A stretch of DNA of 64,000 nucleotides from Arabidopsis thaliana. Taxonomy: Eukaryota; Streptophyta; Magnoliopsida; Brassicales; Brassicaceae. The stretch spans positions 7,192,001 through 7,256,000 of the forward strand of contig NC_003076.8 in the NCBI RefSeq assembly GCF_000001735.4, in the 5' to 3' direction. The position numbers and the translations under genes are program-made. Numbering within the stretch: position 1 is the stretch's first letter; each line of letters starts with the position of its first letter. Of this stretch, positions 16,900-29,743 are shown in pieces. The notes beneath the pieces were generated by a model. It saw nothing but the letters and a program-made list of their open reading frames with translations. It searched no databases and was not told where the DNA came from.

Positions 16900-19830
16900 C
16901 AACTCCCTTTTCCCGGGACAATTCGCAGGTGTGTATTCCTGAAGCTCCGTTGTACTATACTACTATTCCATGTTTCACTTCGAACGAAGAATCAATCATT
17001 CGGTAAATTGGATAATTTGGTCACTTGTTCATGACCTGTACATAATCAAATGTGTAGGAGGACGATGATGAATTTGTAGCATGAACTATCGACGTCATGA
17101 TTCTAGAAATTTATGTTGGAATTAAAGGGCCCAATGAGAAACATACCCAACAATTTATGCTGTTGCTGAAAAGCTTTGCCATCGCATTGTGGATTTCAGC
17201 TGTTTTTGCCTTGTCTTTATCACATTTGACGCCATAGTACTATTTGTGTGTATTCTCGTATTTTACAGTTTCTTTGTCCCTTTTGCATTAGTTTCTGTGA
17301 ATTGAGAAAAGAAACACTCTGTTGCCTGCACTGTTGGGTTCTTTGGAGATAGAATTCTAACATTGACATTACATTTTCATGAAACAGCTTGTGAAGAAGA
17401 TCAAGAGGTGAACTCTGAGTGATGAGTGAGCCAAAGGTCAGGCGTTGGGTTGGCAAATATGAGGTTGGAAGATTGATCGGTGAATGTAATTTTGGGAAAC
17501 TGCGGAGTGCTGTTGACACAGAGACAGGAGACCCTGTGGCTTTGATGATCCTTGATAAAGACAAGGTTCTGAAGCATAAGATGGCTGAACAAGTAATTCG
17601 CTTTCCTAATCGGCATTTAGTTTTTTCATGCCTCCTTTCTTGTCCATTGATATGCCCATGTTACATTTCTTGAAGTAAAACGTGGTTTCTAAAAGCGAGA
17701 TTCACAGATAGATCCGTCTTCTGTCCAGAAGTATGATGTGGGTCTTTCCCGTTTGCTTTTACAGATAAAGAGAGAAATTTCTATTATGAAGCTGATCAAC
17801 CATCCAAATGTAGTGCAGCTTTATGAGGTCTAATTCCATGCCCCAATTTTTTTTCTACGTGTCTCTATTTTCCTTTGATTAACTAGAAATTAACAGCTCC
17901 CTGGAGTCTAAGCAAATATGTTGAAAACTAACATTTAATGAAATGATTGATATCATTCCAGGTTTTGGCGAGCAAGGCGAAGATATATATTGTCCTAGAG
18001 TTCATCAGTGGTGGAAAGCTTTTTGACAAGATTGTGAGTTTTCCCTTTACCTCCCAAGGGCTTTAACTTGTATCTAATGCATCCTTTGGTATTTGAATCA
18101 TGAACCAAATGCCCCATGCTCAGCTAAGAAGTTCCTGTATCTTACAGATTAGATAATATATTATTTTGACTTTTATCCAATCCATTAAATTTAAACTTGT
18201 GAAGAAAAATGATGGGCGCATGAATGAAGACGAAGCACAGAGATATTTCCAGCAGCTTATCAATGCAGTTGATTACTGCCACAGCAGGGGAGTGTACCAC
18301 AGAGACTTAAAGGTACAAGGAACATTTTTGGTAACTCTTAGGCCAAGTTTGCAGTGTAGGTTCTTTTAAGTGCAGCTAGTTAGTGCCTAAATTTTTTTCT
18401 TCTTTATTTTCTCAATGCAGCCAGAAAATTTGCTTCTTGATGCGCAAGAGAATTTGAAAGTCGCTGAATTTGGATTGATTGCCTTGTCCCAACAAGCCGG
18501 GGTAACTACGGAATTTTATTTTCTTAGCATCATTTGTTTGCCTGAGTTCCTACTGAGTTGTCCTTGTCTTATTCTAATGAATGTGCCTGAAGTTCAGTAA
18601 TGATGATATCAGTGATTATATTCACAAAAATTTAACAAGGTCCGTAACACTGATCTTTCTAGATTCTCACCTTATCAGAATTACTTGGTTTTGGCAGGGA
18701 GATGGCCTTCGTCACACTGCATGTGGAAATCCAGATTATGCTGCTCCTGAGGTATTCTTAGTCATGTGGCTTGTTATGCGGTTGTCGAACCATGTCTTTA
18801 ATAGCTTCCTTGTTGCCTTTGTCCCAAGGTTCTTAATGATCAAGGCTATGATGGGGCAAAGGCAGACTTGTGGTCCTGTGGAGTGATACTCTTTGTACTA
18901 CTTGCTGGGTATTTGCCTTTCGAGGATTCTAGTCTCACGACGCTGTACAAAAAGGTAAGAAGTTTGTAATATATATCTCCAGGCTTCTTCTCACTATCAT
19001 CTGTGATTCCTGTTTCTAAGTTGCATTTTTATTTTCAGATCTCATCTGCTGATTTTAGTTGTCCTCCTTGGCTCTCTTCTGGTGTTAAGAATTTGATCGT
19101 CCGAATCTTGGATCCAAACCCTATGACTGTAAGACATTTCGCTTTACTACTCAAGATTTAAATTTATCCTTCTTTTGTTTTCTTCTGTGGAGCCCCACAA
19201 TCTCAATTTGCTTTTTTTTCTTTTTCTTTCTAAGATCATTAGGCGGGTTAGGGGTTACTAGGAATCTGGTGGAAATTTTATGCCTGAGCGCTAATGGAAA
19301 ATTTGAAGAGATCATTCAACATAGACATAGTGGCATTCATATAGTGTTGGTCTAATCTCTAAAGTGTAAATTTAATCGTTCCAAGTAATGGACAGACCAG
19401 AAATCATAATTGGGAATCATAAACTCTGCAATTCTTGCTGACTCTTTCCTTTCCTTTCCATTCCTGAAATGAGCTACTCGTAGTAGATTATCACTTTTCA
19501 AAAATGTTAAAAAGTTGTATACCCCTCCTGTAATTGTTAGTCCCGTGGATAAGCGCATGTTAGAGTCATACAAAGTGGATGCTTTATCTGTATCTTGCAT
19601 GTAGAATTTGAATATCACTCAGAACATCTGCGGATAAATAAACGCCAACGCCACTCGTCCTTGATTTCAAAAGTGGAACTAATTCACTGTGTTAACATGC
19701 CAGCGTATAACAATTCCAGAGATTTTGGAAGATGTGTGGTTCAAGAAAGATTACAAGCCAGCTGTATTTGAAGAGAAGAAAGAAGCAAATTTGGCTGATG
19801 TGGAAGCTGTTTTCAAAGATTCTGAAGTGA
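16900..19830 (+). repeat. Left copy of a CIPK tandem duplication
   Basis: Similar to 25520-28640 through the leader intron, coding exons 1-9 and parts of the introns. Matching examples are the sequence just before each ATG (AGATCAAGAGGTGAAC), the intron before the kinase start (GTGGATTT..CAGCTGTTTTT) and the intron-6 end (CAAGGTTCTTAATGATCAAGG). All nine exon lengths are identical in the two copies. The similarity stops within intron 9. Confidence 0.85.
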
Positions 19831-21700
19831 GTCATTTTATCTATTCTGAGATCTGTTTGATGATTGAGTTGAAGGATTTAGTAGCTGGAAATAATCACCT
19901 AGACTAACCGAACCTTTTAGGCATAGAGCATCTGATTCAATAATATCAAAGTCTTTGATCCTAATATGAAAACATGTTTGAGATAACGTACGCCTTTGCT
20001 TCACAGGAAGGGAGAGTGCAACTGAGGTCATTTCCTTGTGTGATATGTTCAGGTGGTACTACTTGTGGTGATGTTCGTTCAAGGACCAAACTGATGAACG
20101 GCTTGATAGAAAGAGGGAGGCCTCAAGAAGCTCATTCCATTTTCAACACACTTATTGAGGAAGGCCACAAGCCAAGCCTCATCACATACACCACGCTTGT
20201 AACTGCATTGACCCGTCAAAAGCACTTCCACTCTCTCCTCTCCCTCATCTCCAAAGTCGAGAAAAACGGCCTTAAACCTGACACCATTCTCTTCAACGCC
20301 ATCATCAACGCCTCTTCCGAGTCTGGAAATCTCGATCAAGCAATGAAGATTTTCGAAAAAATGAAGGAAAGTGGATGTAAACCCACAGCAAGTACATTTA
20401 ATACTCTCATCAAAGGATATGGCAAAATTGGTAAGCTGGAGGAATCATCAAGACTCCTGGATATGATGTTACGGGATGAGATGCTCCAACCAAATGACAG
20501 AACATGTAACATACTTGTCCAGGCTTGGTGTAACCAGAGGAAGATTGAAGAAGCATGGAACATTGTATATAAGATGCAATCTTATGGGGTAAAACCTGAT
20601 GTAGTTACGTTTAACACATTGGCAAAAGCGTATGCGCGGATCGGGTCAACATGTACAGCTGAGGATATGATCATACCAAGGATGTTACACAATAAAGTTA
20701 AACCGAATGTACGTACCTGCGGTACCATTGTGAATGGCTACTGTGAAGAGGGCAAGATGGAAGAAGCTTTGAGGTTTTTCTATAGAATGAAGGAACTTGG
20801 AGTTCATCCTAATCTGTTTGTTTTTAACTCTCTAATCAAAGGCTTCCTTAACATCAACGACATGGATGGAGTTGGTGAGGTGCGCTTTATAGTTTATAAA
20901 CTTTCAATAATTTTTCACTCACTTTCGTTTTTTTAATTTTAACTATGGGCAAGTTAATATAATAGGTGGTGGATCTGATGGAAGAATTTGGAGTAAAACC
21001 TGATGTGGTAACGTTTAGCACTCTAATGAATGCATGGAGTTCTGTAGGAGATATGAAAAGATGCGAAGAGATCTATACAGATATGTTGGAAGGAGGAATA
21101 GATCCTGATATTCATGCATTTAGTATCCTTGCCAAAGGGTATGCTCGAGCTGGGGAGCCCGAAAAAGCGGAGCAAATCTTGAATCAGATGAGAAAATTTG
21201 GTGTTCGCCCAAATGTAGTGATCTACACACAGATCATAAGCGGTTGGTGCAGTGCTGGTGAAATGAAGAAAGCGATGCAGGTATATAAGAAAATGTGTGG
21301 AATCGTTGGTTTATCGCCTAACTTGACTACTTACGAGACTCTTATATGGGGATTTGGGGAAGCGAAGCAGCCATGGAAAGCAGAAGAGCTTCTGAAAGAC
21401 ATGGAAGGGAAGAATGTTGTTCCCACAAGGAAAACTATGCAACTCATAGCTGATGGATGGAAATCTATTGGTGTCTCTAATAGTAATGATGCCAATACAT
21501 TGGGCTCTTCCTTCTCAACTTCCTCTAAACTCAATATCCCAAATAATATCGCCTCGTCGAGAAGTCCATTGTTCTTAAAAGGAATGCCTGAAAAACCAAA
21601 GCTATGTATCAAGTCTCAGTTTGGTTTGAGGCAGACTCTTTTGGTGGTGTTGTGCAGAGACCAGATTGGGGAAGCCGGGAGATTTTGTAAGTTCATGTAG
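17422..21700 (+). CDS. CIPK-type pseudokinase fused to a PPR array (AT5G21222-like)
   Basis: Exons 17422-17592, 17765-17827, 17962-18033, 18205-18312, 18421-18501, 18698-18751, 18829-18954, 19039-19128, 19704-19826, 20007-20879, 20966-21700; 2496 bases, 831 residues, matching the PPR protein entry I recall for this locus. Residues 1-296 are a CIPK catalytic domain; from 297 on there are about 12 P-type PPR motifs and a Ser/Asn-rich tail. Seen in the kinase: Met42 replaces the VAIK lysine, the glycine loop is GECNFG, and DFG reads EFG (E154). The HRD (134-136), APE and activation-loop HTACG are kept. The NAF and PPI domains of CIPKs are absent. Known of the families: CIPKs are calcium-sensor-regulated kinases; P-type PPR proteins bind organelle RNA. 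Inference: a pseudokinase-PPR protein. The kinase at the N-terminus leaves no obvious transit peptide. Two separate transcripts are possible, but both halves share one open, phase-matched frame. Confidence 0.9.
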
Positions 21701-21759
21701 AATTTGTTTTGCTGTAGAGATGGAGCTAAATTAAAGGGTAAGAAAAGCTGATCAAAGAT

Positions 21760-22739: not shown

Positions 22740-23950
22740 TCACTTAGCCATCATGACTTTGACGAATTCTTCATAGTTAATCTGACCATCGCCATCAACA
22801 TCCGCTTCTCGGATCATCTCATCAACTTCCTCATCGGATAGCTTCTCACCGAGATTTGTCATGACATGTCGAAGCTCTGCTGCAGATATGAAACCATTCT
22901 GGTCTTTATCAAAAACCCTAAAAGCTTCCTTGAGCTCTTCCTCTGAATCAGTGTCCTTCATTTTCCTTGCCATCAGGTTCAGGAACTCCGGGAAATCAAT
23001 GGTCCCGTTCCCATCTGCATCAACTTCATTGATCATGTCTTGAAGCTCAGCTTCTGTTGGGTTTTGCCCCAGAGACCTCATCACGGTTCCGAGCTCCTTG
23101 GTGGTGATACAACCTGCAACCAGATTCAGGTATAATAAGCTTTTAGAGACAGACTTATATCCACAGTCAACAAACAAAAGCCATTGTATTTCTTATTTCG
23201 ACTGATGAAGATCTGGTAAGTAAAAAAGAGAATGATTTTTTTTCATTCAACAAAGTCCTACTAAGTTAACAAAGAAACTCCATTCATACAAACTAAAAAT
23301 AATCACTCTTCCAAGTCCTACCTAAAGTGTTAGGGTAAAAGAAATATTCTGTGTTTATTCCGTCTTTCCTTATGTGTGTGTACTAGCAAATCTAGAATCA
23401 TGTGTATTAAAAAGACACAATATTCTTCTCCAAATCTCTTTACATGGTATCAAAGCCAGAATCAAAACCCTAGCCACTTCGTTCTATTGAACCCACATCT
23501 CACCGTGCAAAGGCCAATAATGCACAACAGAATTTTGCAAGTTTTTCACCAATCAAAGCAGAATACATTCCTGATATCTACAACATCAATCCTTTTTTCA
23601 ACAATTAAACTACTCAAAATCTCAACATATGGATAAATTTCCCAAAACATTTCATTGCTGCATCACGAGACTGAACCAGAACAAGAACAAAACACAGCGT
23701 GAGTCATGAATCGCTATCGAATTAGCCAAAAGCTAGATCGTTCACAAGTGAAACAAACACGAATCATACAGAAAACTGAAGAAGATCATAAATCTGTCAA
23801 ACAAATTCCAGAACTCGTATACGGACGGAGTAATCATCGGGGAAAAAACGCAAAGATCTGGGAAAGAAACATACCATCACCATCCTTATCGAAGAGGCTA
23901 AAGGCTTCCTTGAACTCTGAGATCTGGTCATCGGTGAGCTGATCCGCCAT
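22740..23950 (-). CDS. CAM6: Calmodulin 6
   Basis: Two exons, 23950-23875 and 23113-22740, joined in the first EF-hand at the Gly25/Gly26 border where plant calmodulin genes carry their intron; 450 bases, 149 residues. Four EF-hand loops are complete: DKDGDGCITTKE (21-32), [12 protein letters not shown] (57-68), [12 protein letters not shown] (94-105) and [12 protein letters not shown] (130-141). Met-rich helices and the MMAK end are typical of true calmodulin. It binds Ca2+ and then regulates many targets in cytosol and nucleus. CAM6, CAM7 and the CAM2/3/5 group differ by very few residues, so the isoform name rests on gene position and memory. A TTTTATAAG element at 24041-24050 (read on the minus strand) is a plausible TATA box. 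Confidence 0.97.
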
Positions 23951-25519: not shown

Positions 25520-28500
25520 TTCTCCATGTTTTTGCTTCGAATTCGATGAGTAATTCGGTAACTTAGAGAGTTGCTTACGCTTTTGGTTTATGTGTAAAGT
25601 GTGCATAATCTCTATATTATATGATGGTGATGATGATTAGTTCTGTAGCTAACTCGAGAATCTCGCTTCAATTGTGTATCAGTACAAATATTGGTTTAGT
25701 GGAGAATTTTGGATTTGTAGATGCTTGCTTGAACAATATATGATTTATCTAAGTCATGATTCTAGAGATTTAGGCTGTTTTTGGAGTAATTAAAAAGGAT
25801 GATCGGAATTTCCGGAGAAAATCTCCGCTGCTAGATTTGTCATTGCCTTGTGGATTTTCAGCTGTTTTTACGCTTTGTCTTTATTGAATTCTGTGGCATA
25901 TTACTGTTCTTTTCTTGACGGTTTCTTTCACTTTTTTTGCATTTAGTTTCCGTGAATTGAGCAAAGAAACACTATCTTGCCTGTTGTTGTGTTGGATTCT
26001 TTTCATGGAATCATTCTTATATGCGAGATTACATTTTCCAAAAACAGCTTTTGAAGATCAAGAGGTGAACATTCGGAGTGATGAATCGGCCAAAGGTTCA
26101 GCGTCGTGTTGGAAAGTATGAGGTTGGAAAGACGCTTGGACAAGGCACTTTTGCGAAAGTTCGGTGTGCTGTTAATACTGAGACAGGAGAACGCGTGGCT
26201 CTCAAAATACTTGATAAGGAGAAGGTTCTTAAGCATAAGATGGCTGAACAGGTAACTCTCTTTCCTAATAAGATAATATACTAGATGCATCTTCAGTCCA
26301 AAAGTATGATGTGTGTCTTTCCTGATTGTTTTTACAGATAAGGAGAGAAATTTGTACTATGAAGCTGATAAACCATCCAAATGTAGTGCGGCTGTATGAG
26401 GTATATCTCCATTTTTCTATTTGTGTCTCTATTTTTCTTTGGCTTGCTTTAGAGCTCTTTGTATGTGAAGCCAATGTGCTGAAGCTAACTTTTAAGGAAA
26501 TGATTGATACCGTTCCAGGTTTTGGCGAGCAAGACTAAGATATATATTGTTCTAGAGTTCGGCACTGGTGGAGAGCTTTTTGACAAAATTGTGAGTTTTC
26601 CTTAATCCCTCCCAATGGATTTATAATTGTTACTTGATCCATCTATTGTTGTTTGAACATGTATGCTAAGCTCTGGTCAATCTTGATAGATGTTCCTGTT
26701 TCTTGCAATTGAAACGTTCTCTTATCTCTGATGTAGATTTAACCTTTGTAGATTTAACCTTTGCATTATGTGTAAACTTGTGAAGGTACATGATGGGCGC
26801 TTGAAAGAAGAGAATGCACGGAAATATTTTCAGCAGCTTATTAATGCAGTTGATTACTGCCATAGCAGGGGAGTGTACCACCGGGACTTAAAGGTATGAT
26901 ATTTTTTGGTTTATGCCCAAGTTTGCAGTATGTTTCTTTAATGTGCAGATAATTGATACTTACAATTTCACTGCAGCCGGAAAACTTGCTTCTAGATGCT
27001 CAAGGAAATCTGAAAGTCTCTGATTTTGGATTGAGTGCGTTGTCCCGACAAGTCAGGGTAATCACTGAGTCTTATTTTTCTTTCTTAGCATCCTTTTGTT
27101 TACCTGAATTCTCACTGATTTGTCCTTGTCCTATTCTAATGAAGAAACCTGTAGTTCAACGACGATGTGTCTCATTGACTGTTTATACATATATTTAATA
27201 AGCTCTGAATACTGACCATTCTAGATTCTCAGCTTATCAAACTTATTTGGTCTTGGCAGGGTGATGGTCTTCTTCACACTGCATGCGGAACTCCAAACTA
27301 TGCTGCTCCTGAGGTATGCTTAGGCATGTGTCTTGTATGTCATGCGGTTGTTGCACCATGTTATGTTACTAATAGCTTCGTTGTTGCTCTTGTCACAAGG
27401 TTCTTAATGATCAAGGTTATGACGGGGCAACCGCAGACTTGTGGTCCTGTGGAGTGATACTCTTTGTACTACTTGCTGGCTACTTGCCTTTCGAGGATTC
27501 TAATCTCATGACGCTGTATAAAAAGGTAAGAAGTTTTGTCATTTTTTCAAAGCTTCTTCTTTCACCATTATCGGTGATTACTGTTTCTATGTTAACACTT
27601 TCGTCATTTCTCAGATAATAGCTGGTGAATATCATTGTCCTCCTTGGCTCTCTCCTGGTGCTAAGAACTTGATTGTCCGAATCTTGGATCCAAACCCTAT
27701 GACTGTAAGATATTTCAGTTTATTAATGCTTTCAAGATTTAAATCTATTCTTCTTTTGTTTTCTTCAGTCGAACCCCAACAATCTTGTCTTGTTTTTATT
27801 CTTAGACACTTAGGTAGGTTAGGGCTTACCAGGGTAACATATATGGGAAGATTTGATTGTCTAAGCCCTAACGGCCTAACCCACCAAAGTGGCATTCTAT
27901 TGTTTGTCTTGTTCTATTTTTAGCATTAGGTTTAATATCAAATATACTTCTTCATATTTAGGCATCATTTACTATTTTGTAAATTGAGTCACAACGTGTA
28001 AGCAGAATTATTGACTTGTTTAAAGTAACTGTACGTTTCTGTGTCATATAAATTAATAATTTCCATTCTAGCTGACATTTTCTTTTAGGGATATCTACCT
28101 GCAATGAGCTTCTGCTGGTAGATTTTATCATAATCTTTCTAAATTGCTCAAAAGTTTATGATTCTCCTGTATTTTTTAGTTATATACATAGCGGATTATG
28201 ATAGATATTCAGTTATGATTTGGTGAAGATTGTTTGATTAGTATCTTAATCATGATATATAACTAAGGGCTTATTTATGTGTTTTCTTATTCTGGGTTTT
28301 GGGGGGGTTTCCTATTTCTTAAGCTCTTGAATTCTTTGTGTAATCACTTTTATCTACTTTTTATATCAAAGTCTTTCTATATTTCCTCTTCGACTCTTTA
28401 TTACTTTTTTTTGTGTCTTGCATGTTAAACTTAAACTCATTCAAAACATCTGCGACTAAAGCCGCTCGTCCTTGATTTCAACGGTGGAACTAATTGACTG

Positions 28501-28640
28501 TGTGTTAACGTGCCAGCGTATCACAATTCCAGAGGTTCTGGGAGATGCGTGGTTCAAGAAAAATTACAAGCCAGCTGTTTTCGAGGAGAAGGAAGAAGCC
28601 AACTTGGATGATGTGGACGCTGTTTTCAAAGATTCAGAAG
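25520..28640 (+). repeat. Right copy of a CIPK tandem duplication
   Basis: Counterpart of 16900-19830. It covers the leader intron and coding exons 1-9 of CIPK26 and ends within intron 9. Intron 8 (27705-28516) has diverged the most between the copies. Confidence 0.85.
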
Positions 28641-29743
28641 TGAGTCTTATTTATTTTGTCTGCGATCTATAAGATAAATGAACTGTTTTTCCTTTTTTCA
28701 AGTTACTTGAATAAATGTACATAACAGTCTGTAATTTATTAACAGGAGCATCATGTCACAGAAAAGAAAGAGGAGCAACCAACTTCAATGAATGCCTTTG
28801 AGTTGATATCAATGTCGAGAGCTCTGGATCTCGGGAATTTGTTTGAAGAAGAAGAGGTATGTCTCTTAGACTTAACATACTTATTTGCTTGAATCCTTGA
28901 GCAAACACTTGTTTTTCCACATTATATTTTCAGTAATGAAGTCTATACCGTTTAACTTGCAGGGATTCAAGCGAGAAACGAGATTTGCTGCTAAAGGTGC
29001 TGCTAATGATTTAGTCCAAAAGATTGAAGAAGCTTCTAAGCCGCTTGGTTTCGATATTCAAAAGAAAAACTATAAGGTAATGCGATCGTGTGAAACCTTA
29101 ACAGCTATTGGCATCGTCTTTTCCTTTTTCTTAGATGGCTTCCTGTTAGAGTTAAGAATCACAAACACATGATAAAAAGACTCACTCCCTTGGTATAAAT
29201 CGATAAACTCGAACCTCACCAACAAGTTCACTTATAGACGGATTACCTATTAGGGTAGAAATGAAGGTCCTAATTAACATATTATCACCCTCATTGCTCA
29301 CTTCGTTACGGTGTGGAAGTTTCCTTTTACTGAAGCGCTACTTATGTACACAGATGAGACTTGAAAACGTGACTGCTGGAAGGAAAGGAAACCTAAGAGT
29401 TGCAACTGAGGTACATTATGCACTCCTGACTCTTTTTCTGTTATGAAGTTAGTATCTGAATCCAAATTGTCATGGAACTAAAGAAGTGACCGTATCTTAT
29501 AATGTTTTGTAGATATTTCAAGTATCACCGTCTCTTCATATGATCGAAGTCCGGAAAACGAAAGGGGATACACTAGAATTCCATAAGGTAATCATTTTTC
29601 AAGTTTTCGACTAATATGTTCACTTGAGGACCGATTCTTATATCTCTGTTCATCTACTTTCTTTACAGTTCTACAAGAAGCTCTCAACCTCACTTAACGA
29701 TGTGGTTTGGAAATCTGGCGAGAGCTCTGGTCTAAGCAAATAA
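26081..29743 (+). CDS. CIPK26: CBL-interacting protein kinase 26
   Basis: Exons 26081-26251, 26338-26400, 26519-26590, 26786-26893, 26977-27057, 27260-27313, 27400-27525, 27615-27704, 28517-28639, 28746-28856, 28963-29076, 29354-29410, 29513-29587, 29669-29743; 1320 bases, 439 residues, typical of the family. The kinase is complete: glycine loop [12 protein letters not shown] lysine K42, HRD, DFG with D154, activation segment [13 protein letters not shown]. The NAF motif starts at 312 (NAFELISMS) and binds calcineurin B-like calcium sensors; the PPI region that binds PP2C phosphatases follows. A noncoding leader exon seems to end near 25507, with the acceptor just before 26048. CIPK26 is reported to act in abscisic acid signalling and on the NADPH oxidase RBOHF. 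The start follows the upstream GTG triplet at 26078, which is not used. Confidence 0.96.

What the first reader, a model, noticed from the sequence alone, without database searches (positions are those of the whole stretch)
17422..21700. CIPK-derived pseudokinase fused in frame to a PPR array
Seen: nine exons of a CIPK catalytic domain run on, in phase, into two exons that encode about 12 P-type PPR motifs. The lysine codon of VAIK is ATG (17545-17547, Met42). The DFG aspartate codon is GAA (18466-18468, Glu154). The glycine loop is changed, yet HRD, APE and the activation-loop threonine remain. All 831 codons are open. Known: kinase-PPR chimeras are rare and PPR proteins usually start with an organelle transit peptide, missing here. 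Inference: either a new signalling-to-RNA adaptor, or a PPR gene that captured a broken kinase's promoter and 5' half.
Basis: partly seen in the sequence, partly recalled or inferred. Interest (0 to 1): 0.85.

Follow-up and report, generated by a model that had tools for sequence, protein, structure and literature searches.

The report
Dead kinase fused to PPR protein
This is a known Arabidopsis gene (At5g21222, also called AtC401) in which the front part of a duplicated calcium-signalling kinase gene was joined, inside an intron, to an RNA-binding repeat protein; the join is shared by several mustard-family genera, while the kinase part has lost its catalytic residues in different ways in different lineages.

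Summary
The window is chr5:7192001-7256000 of what I take to be Arabidopsis thaliana; the gene is the annotated At5g21222/AtC401, so the fusion is not new. Added here: (1) The kinase half is a tandem copy of CIPK26 (window 26081-29743). Exons, introns and 5' leader align; homology ends ~40 nt into intron 9. The PPR paralog At5g25630 has a phase-0 intron just before the homologous exon. So an intronic join swapped PPR exon 1 for CIPK exons 1-9, in frame, before the NAF domain. (2) Ten fused clusters from eight Brassicaceae genera top the homolog list. (3) 9 of 9 fused rows covering the sites lack VAIK Lys, DFG Asp or both, by different routes. (4) The N-lobe varies about twice, exon 6 three to five times as much as in CIPK26; exon 9 is conserved. 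(5) PPR code positions 5 and 35 are the two best conserved of 35, and match unfused At5g25630 22/22 in motifs 1-11. (6) Unfused eudicot relatives show no obvious transit peptide (by eye). Best reading: a non-organellar RNA-binding PPR protein carrying a catalytically dead CIPK lobe as scaffold or passenger. No transcript or protein evidence could be examined.

The parts
17422..21700 (+). At5g21222/AtC401 coding region, 11 exons, 831 aa pseudokinase-PPR fusion
   Evidence: spliced translation open throughout; eight homologs covering the whole query at 83-95% identity
17422..19826 (+). exons 1-9: CIPK26-derived kinase half, residues 1-296, K42M and D154E, no NAF domain
   Evidence: Pfam Pkinase 13-268, no PF03822; 234/296 aa and 761/888 exon nt identical to CIPK26; residue table
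17545..17547 (+). VAIK lysine codon replaced by ATG (Met42)
   Evidence: K in all 10 CIPK26/CIPK3 rows compared
18466..18468 (+). DFG aspartate codon replaced by GAA (Glu154); Asp in the A. lyrata and A. arenosa-type rows
17081..17421 (+). 5' leader region homologous to the leader of CIPK26 (about 25740-26080)
   Evidence: blastn 17172-17610 vs 25833-26269 at 75%, and a short match 17081-17113 vs 25740-25772; windowed alignment
19827..20006 (+). hybrid intron 9: first ~40 nt CIPK26-like, remainder without blastn match to CIPK26; fusion breakpoint somewhere in about 19867-20006
   Evidence: blastn homology to CIPK26 stops at 19867; the PPR paralog At5g25630 has a phase-0 intron at the same place
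20007..21700 (+). exons 10-11: Cys-rich leader (CxxC-x5-C) and 12 P-type PPR motifs (residues 319-741) plus tail
19974..19976 (+). in-frame ATG in intron 9 upstream of exon 10: possible internal start for a PPR-only product; reads Arg in relative P0125
20051..20052 (+). AG of a possible alternative 3' splice site inside exon 10; splicing to 20053 gives an out-of-frame end identical to that of Camelina kinase-only model P0176
26081..29743 (+). CIPK26 coding region, intact tandem relative of the kinase half
   Evidence: exons 1-9 at 26081-28639 with VALK, HRD and DFG; stop codon read by eye

Best explanation
A tandem copy of CIPK26 was joined to a relocated PPR gene of the AtC401 family by recombination inside introns of equal phase (CIPK intron 9 and PPR intron 1, both phase 0). 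The PPR gene thereby lost its own short first exon and promoter and took over the CIPK leader plus exons 1-9; the CIPK copy lost its NAF/regulatory half. This most likely happened once, before the eight sampled Brassicaceae genera diverged and after the split from Cleomaceae. The product most likely works as a sequence-specific RNA-binding PPR protein outside the organelles. Its kinase half cannot phosphorylate; it is kept as a folded lobe and linker (scaffold, partner surface, or merely the translated leader). Shown: anatomy, homology, breakpoint, conservation, residue losses. Inferred: RNA binding, cytosolic or nuclear location, absence of catalysis, promoter takeover, single origin.
For: Exons are 761/888 and introns 1-8 956/1360 identical to CIPK26, with homology ending within intron 9; phase-0 intron at the matching place in At5g25630. 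Ten fused clusters P0001-P0010 are the first 10 of 120 listed. In the tree of 22 kinase rows the fused rows plus the Noccaea hybrid form one group (82/87), with Tarenaya CIPK26 on the CIPK3 side (99/93). 9 of 9 fused rows with the region lack K42 and/or D154. Fused kinase halves differ more than PPR halves (At-Camelina 41/296 vs 29/535, p=7e-5) and more than CIPK26 kinase domains (41/296 vs 9/296, p=2e-6; one pair tested). Exon 9 mean pairwise difference is 0.090, against 0.300 for exon 1 and 0.052-0.077 for the PPR motifs. Code positions 5 and 35 rank 1st and 2nd of 35 in conservation; 22/22 match At5g25630 in motifs 1-11. A kinase-like fold is predicted, nearest to CIPK23/CIPK24 kinase domains.
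Against: No transcript, ribosome or peptide data could be examined. Relatives are gene predictions: Capsella P0008 starts in exon 4, Thlaspi lacks exon 6, Cardamine lacks part of the PPR array. The C401-type PPR ortholog of Tarenaya was not seen (only the At5g25630 type), so the unfused state there rests on CIPK26. Several Brassicaceae genera (Eutrema, Arabis, Noccaea, Sinapis, Microthlaspi, Hirschfeldia) showed only At5g25630-type PPRs in the lists, so fusion there is not shown. The pairwise omega of the fused kinase vs CIPK26 is 0.31 and rejects 1 (LRT 30.9), but the branch model cannot separate the fused branch (0.71) from 1 (2dlnL 0.1) nor from CIPK26 (2dlnL 1.6). One-origin support is only 82/87, and in the exon 1-3 tree Brassica, Raphanus and Thlaspi fall on the CIPK26/CIPK3 side of an 86/95 split, so gene conversion with CIPK26 is likely. 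The excess of change before residue 183 reaches p<0.05 in 4 of 6 pairs tested (not Camelina 0.12, Cochlearia 0.47).
Confidence: 0.72

Rival explanations
1. The pseudokinase half is a selected regulatory module: it binds CIPK/CBL-pathway partners or an upstream kinase through its kept C-lobe, activation-loop Thr and linker, and switches the RNA-binding half on or off.
For: The frame is kept through both halves in the eight models that cover the whole query; mean pairwise difference relative to CIPK26 is 1.06 in the C-lobe and 0.53 in residues 269-296, against 2.13 in the N-lobe; predicted kinase-like fold.
Against: The activation segment (exon 6) is the most variable part (5.2 times CIPK26; 3.4 times with the alignment), absent from the Thlaspi model and altered in Raphanus and Cochlearia; the CBL-binding NAF domain is absent; the conserved linker is modelled with low confidence; no interaction data.
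Confidence: 0.2
2. Two products in practice: the PPR protein is made from an internal start (promoter in intron 8/9, ATG 19974), and the kinase exons are a decaying upstream leftover.
For: In-frame ATG 19974 with stops upstream in the intron; N-lobe and exon 6 relaxed, exon 9 and PPR conserved; Camelina P0176 is a kinase-only model whose end matches an acceptor inside exon 10; Capsella model X3 starts in exon 4.
Against: ATG 19974 reads Arg in relative P0125; exon 9, upstream of that ATG, is conserved almost like the PPR motifs; the phase-0 joint is kept in the fused models.
Confidence: 0.15
3. Gene-prediction artefact: two neighbouring genes merged in silico and copied by homology into other genomes.
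For: The same PPR family is merged with signal peptidase I in at least eight eudicot models, which shows how such merges can arise; no transcript was seen here.
Against: No CIPK 3' exons or NAF domain remain between the halves, the splice sites are canonical and phase-matched, and CIPK26 homology stops inside the 180-nt intron: the DNA itself is fused.
Confidence: 0.05

Closest known systems
At5g21222 / AtC401 (Oguchi et al. 2004, Gene 330:29; primary paper not held, seen only as reference entries)
   Same: It is this gene; one citing paper calls it a leaf-specific PPR gene 'with protein kinase activity' with circadian expression (PMC13291374, passages seen).
   Different: The catalytic residues are gone, so kinase activity is unlikely; origin and breakpoint are not in the passages I saw, and what the 2004 paper says on them is unknown to me.
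CIPK26 (recalled as At5g21326; window 26081-29743)
   Same: Same exon structure over exons 1-9 and 79% aa identity over 296 residues.
   Different: CIPK26 keeps VAIK Lys, DFG Asp and the regulatory half; the fusion has lost all three.
At5g25630 and unfused C401-type PPR proteins (Vitis, Populus, Ginkgo)
   Same: Same Cys-rich leader, 12 motifs, intron position in At5g25630, and 22/22 recognition residues of motifs 1-11 with At5g25630.
   Different: At5g25630 has a short 24-codon first exon instead of a kinase half; 51% aa identity over the PPR half.
CIPK23 and CIPK24 kinase-domain structures (4czt, 4d28)
   Same: Closest solved relatives by sequence and by fold.
   Different: Those come from active kinases (recalled); this one lacks K42 and D154.

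Membership tests
CIPK/SnRK3 kinase | SnRK3-type kinase domain sequence | tested here: met
   Pfam Pkinase 226 bits; CIPK23/24 top of PDB sequence search; groups next to CIPK26
CIPK/SnRK3 kinase | Catalytic Lys (VAIK) and Asp (DFG) | tested here: not met
   Met42 and Glu154
CIPK/SnRK3 kinase | NAF/FISL CBL-binding domain (PF03822) | tested here: not met
   No PF03822 in Pfam scan; listed for CIPK26-type relatives P0177-P0179
P-class PPR protein | Tandem 35-aa motifs | tested here: met
   12 motifs, residues 319-741, lengths 35-36; PF13041 314.8 bits
P-class PPR protein | Conserved RNA-recognition residues 5 and 35 | tested here: met
   Ranks 1 and 2 of 35 positions in conservation against eight unfused relatives
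P-class PPR protein | Organelle transit peptide (usual, not defining) | tested here: inconclusive
   By eye only: the N-terminus resembles that of CIPK26; unfused eudicot relatives show no obvious transit peptide; no predictor available
Pseudokinase | Kinase fold with loss of essential catalytic residues | tested here: met
   Residue table; model of cluster P0010 matches CIPK23/24, though CIPK rows were in its alignment
Pseudokinase | No phosphotransfer in vitro | not testable with these tools
   Needs purified protein

The most novel reading that the evidence does not exclude
A CIPK-derived pseudokinase has become a signal-sensing regulatory domain of a non-organellar PPR protein, so that this protein and its unfused paralog At5g25630 recognise the same RNA sequence but only the fused one is under calcium/CIPK-pathway control, a wiring unique to Brassicaceae.
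Probability: 0.15. Interest if true: 0.75.

Novelty: already known. Interest (0 to 1): 0.42.

Why it matters
The gene is annotated, yet the full-text search found only two papers holding the name At5g21222, and none of the passages I saw treats its kinase half as dead or explains its origin. It is a clean natural case of intron-phase-matched domain fusion with the donor type still next door and an unfused paralog with nearly the same predicted RNA code. That makes two questions directly testable: does a kinase lobe without catalysis add function to an RNA-binding protein, and what RNA does a seed-plant-wide PPR family without evident organelle targeting bind? Descriptions that call it a protein kinase are probably wrong about activity.

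Tried and rejected
Separate-gene reading: looked for a kept PPR first exon or conserved internal start in intron 9; found one in-frame ATG (19974) that reads Arg in relative P0125, so not favoured but kept as a rival.

Ancestral PPR site: at least eight eudicot models merge this PPR with signal peptidase I (S26 motif and PF10502; the Vitis model P0012 also ends in such a stretch, by eye). In A. thaliana the best signal-peptidase match (C3:8971009) has no PPR match in the 8.9 kb upstream, so the PPR gene has probably moved. Not pursued.

dN/dS: pairwise fused kinase vs CIPK26 gave dN 0.114, dS 0.366, omega 0.31, LRT against 1 of 30.9; pairs with CIPK9 did not converge (dS unbounded), and one branch-model run hit the boundary at 20. 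Exon 1 of CIPK9 and CIPK23 was picked with a wrong end; gapped columns were dropped (280 columns left). No claim of neutrality or positive selection rests on the branch model. Nucleotide sequences of other Brassicaceae were not available.

A bacterial promoter scan of intron 8-9 is irrelevant to plants and ignored.

Literature: the AtC401 paper is not held. 'AtC401' or 'PnC401' gave 12 papers, mostly unrelated by title; I opened three. Searches on kinase-PPR fusions and related terms listed 3, 0, 0, 0, 0, 1 and 1 papers; by title none concerns this gene and none was opened. 'At5g25630' gave four papers; only PMC10304202 was read, in one passage.

Rows dropped before counts: P0008 (no N-lobe), P0010 (A. 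thaliana type), P0176 and P0177 were left out of the fused-rate rows. P0176 and P0177 also have K42M; P0008 keeps D154 and cannot be scored for K42. The first 51 residues of P0007 were trimmed and CIPK rows cut near residue 325. Kinase-vs-PPR counts were tested in three pairs only.
Full report
What it is. The tool places the window at 7192001-7256000 of contig 5 of an unnamed 119.7 Mb, seven-contig genome. From that size, the near-identical A. suecica/A. thaliana-type cluster P0010 and the names sources give to relatives ('At5g21222'), I take it to be Arabidopsis thaliana chromosome 5 and the gene At5g21222. A 2026 paper equates At5g21222 with AtC401, a leaf-specific PPR gene 'with protein kinase activity' and circadian expression, citing Oguchi et al. 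2004 (PMC13291374, passages seen; the primary paper is not held). A grapevine paper names AT5G21222 and AT5G25630 as the two Arabidopsis orthologs of a PPR gene it calls PTCD1 (PMC10304202, passage seen).

Observation. The eleven exons give 831 open codons; every intron is GT-AG and phase 0. Pfam finds one protein kinase domain and a PPR array, but no NAF domain. Twelve motifs of 35-36 residues cover 319-741.

Origin. CIPK26 starts 8.7 kb downstream of this gene's start codon. Blastn aligns 17172-17610 (75%), 17709-19222 (77%) and 19583-19867 (80%) with it. Summed by element, exons are 761/888 (86%) and introns 1-8 956/1360 (70%) identical. The match includes the 5' leader and stops about 40 nt into intron 9. 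The PPR paralog At5g25630 has an intron after 24 codons, phase 0, directly before the exon homologous to exon 10, and a second one at the exon 10/11 position (by eye). So the joint is most simply CIPK intron 9 to PPR intron 1, both phase 0, which explains why the frame is intact and why the fusion stops just before the NAF domain.

Spread. Among 120 listed homologs the first ten clusters are fused: A. thaliana x arenosa, A. lyrata, Camelina, Brassica rapa, Cardamine, Raphanus, Thlaspi, Capsella, Cochlearia and A. suecica, eight genera in all; eight cover the whole query, while the Capsella model starts in exon 4 and the A. suecica one ends in intron 10. Among 120 listed hits to the PPR half (of 754), the other named Brassicaceae entries (for example Noccaea, Arabis, Eutrema, Sinapis, Microthlaspi, Hirschfeldia) are of the At5g25630 type at 53-55% identity; the one close kinase-less piece, P0125, reads through intron 9 on a 1.4 kb contig. 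So fusion is shown for eight genera and is open for the rest. The Musa kinase-PPR model P0058 carries a different, receptor-type kinase (by eye) and is probably a separate merge. Tarenaya (Cleomaceae) has an unfused CIPK26 and an At5g25630-type PPR; its C401-type PPR was not seen. In a tree of 22 kinase rows the fused rows with the Noccaea hybrid form one group (82/87), and Tarenaya CIPK26 groups with CIPK3 (99/93). The exon 1-3 tree puts Brassica, Raphanus and Thlaspi on the CIPK side (86/95), and Noccaea P0177 joins a fusion-like N-half (K42M, HGD) to a CIPK26-like C-half with a NAF domain; both point to exchange between the tandem neighbours.

Loss of catalysis. Of nine fused rows covering the region, K42 is Met in five (A. 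thaliana, A. arenosa-type, A. lyrata, Camelina, Cardamine), Ser in one (Cochlearia) and Lys in three (B. rapa, Raphanus, Thlaspi). D154 is Gly in four (those three and Cochlearia), Glu in A. thaliana only, and Asp in four. All nine lack at least one, and all nine have changed one or both of glycines 20 and 22; the ten CIPK26/CIPK3 rows keep all of these. Inactivation therefore came by at least two routes, probably after the fusion; if gene conversion gave Lys42 back to the Brassica line, the order differs but the two routes remain.

Constraint. Kinase halves differ more than PPR halves in the three pairs tested (A. lyrata 27/296 vs 18/535, p=7e-4; Camelina 41/296 vs 29/535, p=7e-5; B. rapa 61/296 vs 51/535, p=1e-5) and more than CIPK26 in the one pair tested (Camelina 41/296 vs 9/296, p=2e-6). 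Relative to CIPK26 rows the mean pairwise difference is 2.1 times in the N-lobe, 5.2 in exon 6 (3.4 with the alignment), 1.1 in the C-lobe and 0.5 in residues 269-296. In exon 9 it is 0.090, near that of the PPR motifs (0.052-0.077). The Brassica-tribe CIPK26 rows used as yardstick are themselves fast, which lowers these ratios. Of 178 columns invariant in ten CIPK rows, 104 are also kept in the fused rows, gaps allowed; the contrast of losses before and after residue 183 is not significant over all rows (54/120 vs 20/58, p=0.20) and weak for A. thaliana alone (17/120 vs 2/58, p=0.04). So the pattern is relaxed but not free evolution, with the linker next to the PPR array best kept.

PPR half. 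Against eight unfused relatives, positions 5 and 35 are the two most conserved of 35. In motifs 1-11 the fused protein shares 22/22 with At5g25630 and 20/22 with Ginkgo; Corchorus shows no excess (17/22, p=0.2); motif 12 differs between the two paralogs at position 35. By recalled code rules, motifs 2-11 predict G-N-Y-U-Y-N-U-G-A-A. Unfused eudicot relatives begin with short N-termini rich in charged residues and carry a CxxC-x5-C-like element, with no obvious transit peptide by eye; the Ginkgo model has a longer N-terminal extension that I did not judge. The family was probably not organellar before the fusion.

Structure. A 60-row alignment gives a kinase-like model of cluster P0010 (pLDDT mostly 70-94 over residues 11-270, low at 159-175 and from about 271 to 305), closest to CIPK23 and CIPK24 kinase domains (TM by target 0.82-0.90 in the first twelve rows). 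The alignment contained CIPKs, so this shows compatibility with the fold, not proof.

Verdict. Real, old and already annotated. Most likely a PPR RNA-binding protein with a dead CIPK lobe acquired by an intronic fusion. Whether the lobe does anything is the open question.

Noticed in passing
P0177 (Noccaea caerulescens, 440 aa): CIPK with fusion-type N-lobe (VTLM, HGD, LKLEKL) and CIPK26-type C-half with NAF: looks like a hybrid of the tandem neighbours or an assembly/model merge.
   Followed up: partly
P0011, P0014, P0015, P0016, P0020, P0024, P0123, P0153: Eight eudicot models merge the C401-type PPR with signal peptidase I; suggests the PPR gene ancestrally sat beside that gene and moved in the Brassicaceae line (no PPR match within 8.9 kb upstream of the A. 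thaliana copy).
   Followed up: partly
window 20061-21217 and family members: RNA-recognition residues of the PPR array are nearly invariant from Ginkgo to Arabidopsis and, in motifs 1-11, identical in the unfused paralog At5g25630.
   Followed up: yes
window 21680-21720: The family's C-terminal SCxxVFL-like tail is kept in Brassica, Thlaspi and Cochlearia models, but ends early as FCKFM in A. thaliana, A. lyrata, Camelina, Capsella and Cardamine; in A. thaliana a similar peptide continues in another frame (by eye).
   Followed up: partly
P0010 vs window residue 178: A 605-aa cluster with intron 10 retained (42 members) has PNYAAPE where the window has PDYAAPE, hinting at variation within the A. 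thaliana line.
   Followed up: no
window 22740-23177, minus strand: EF-hand protein open frame (calmodulin-like, by eye) between the fusion and CIPK26.
   Followed up: no
P0058 (Musa troglodytarum, 1186 aa): Receptor-type kinase plus C401-type PPR in one model, probably merged genes, as a PPR-only Musa model (P0037) exists.
   Followed up: no
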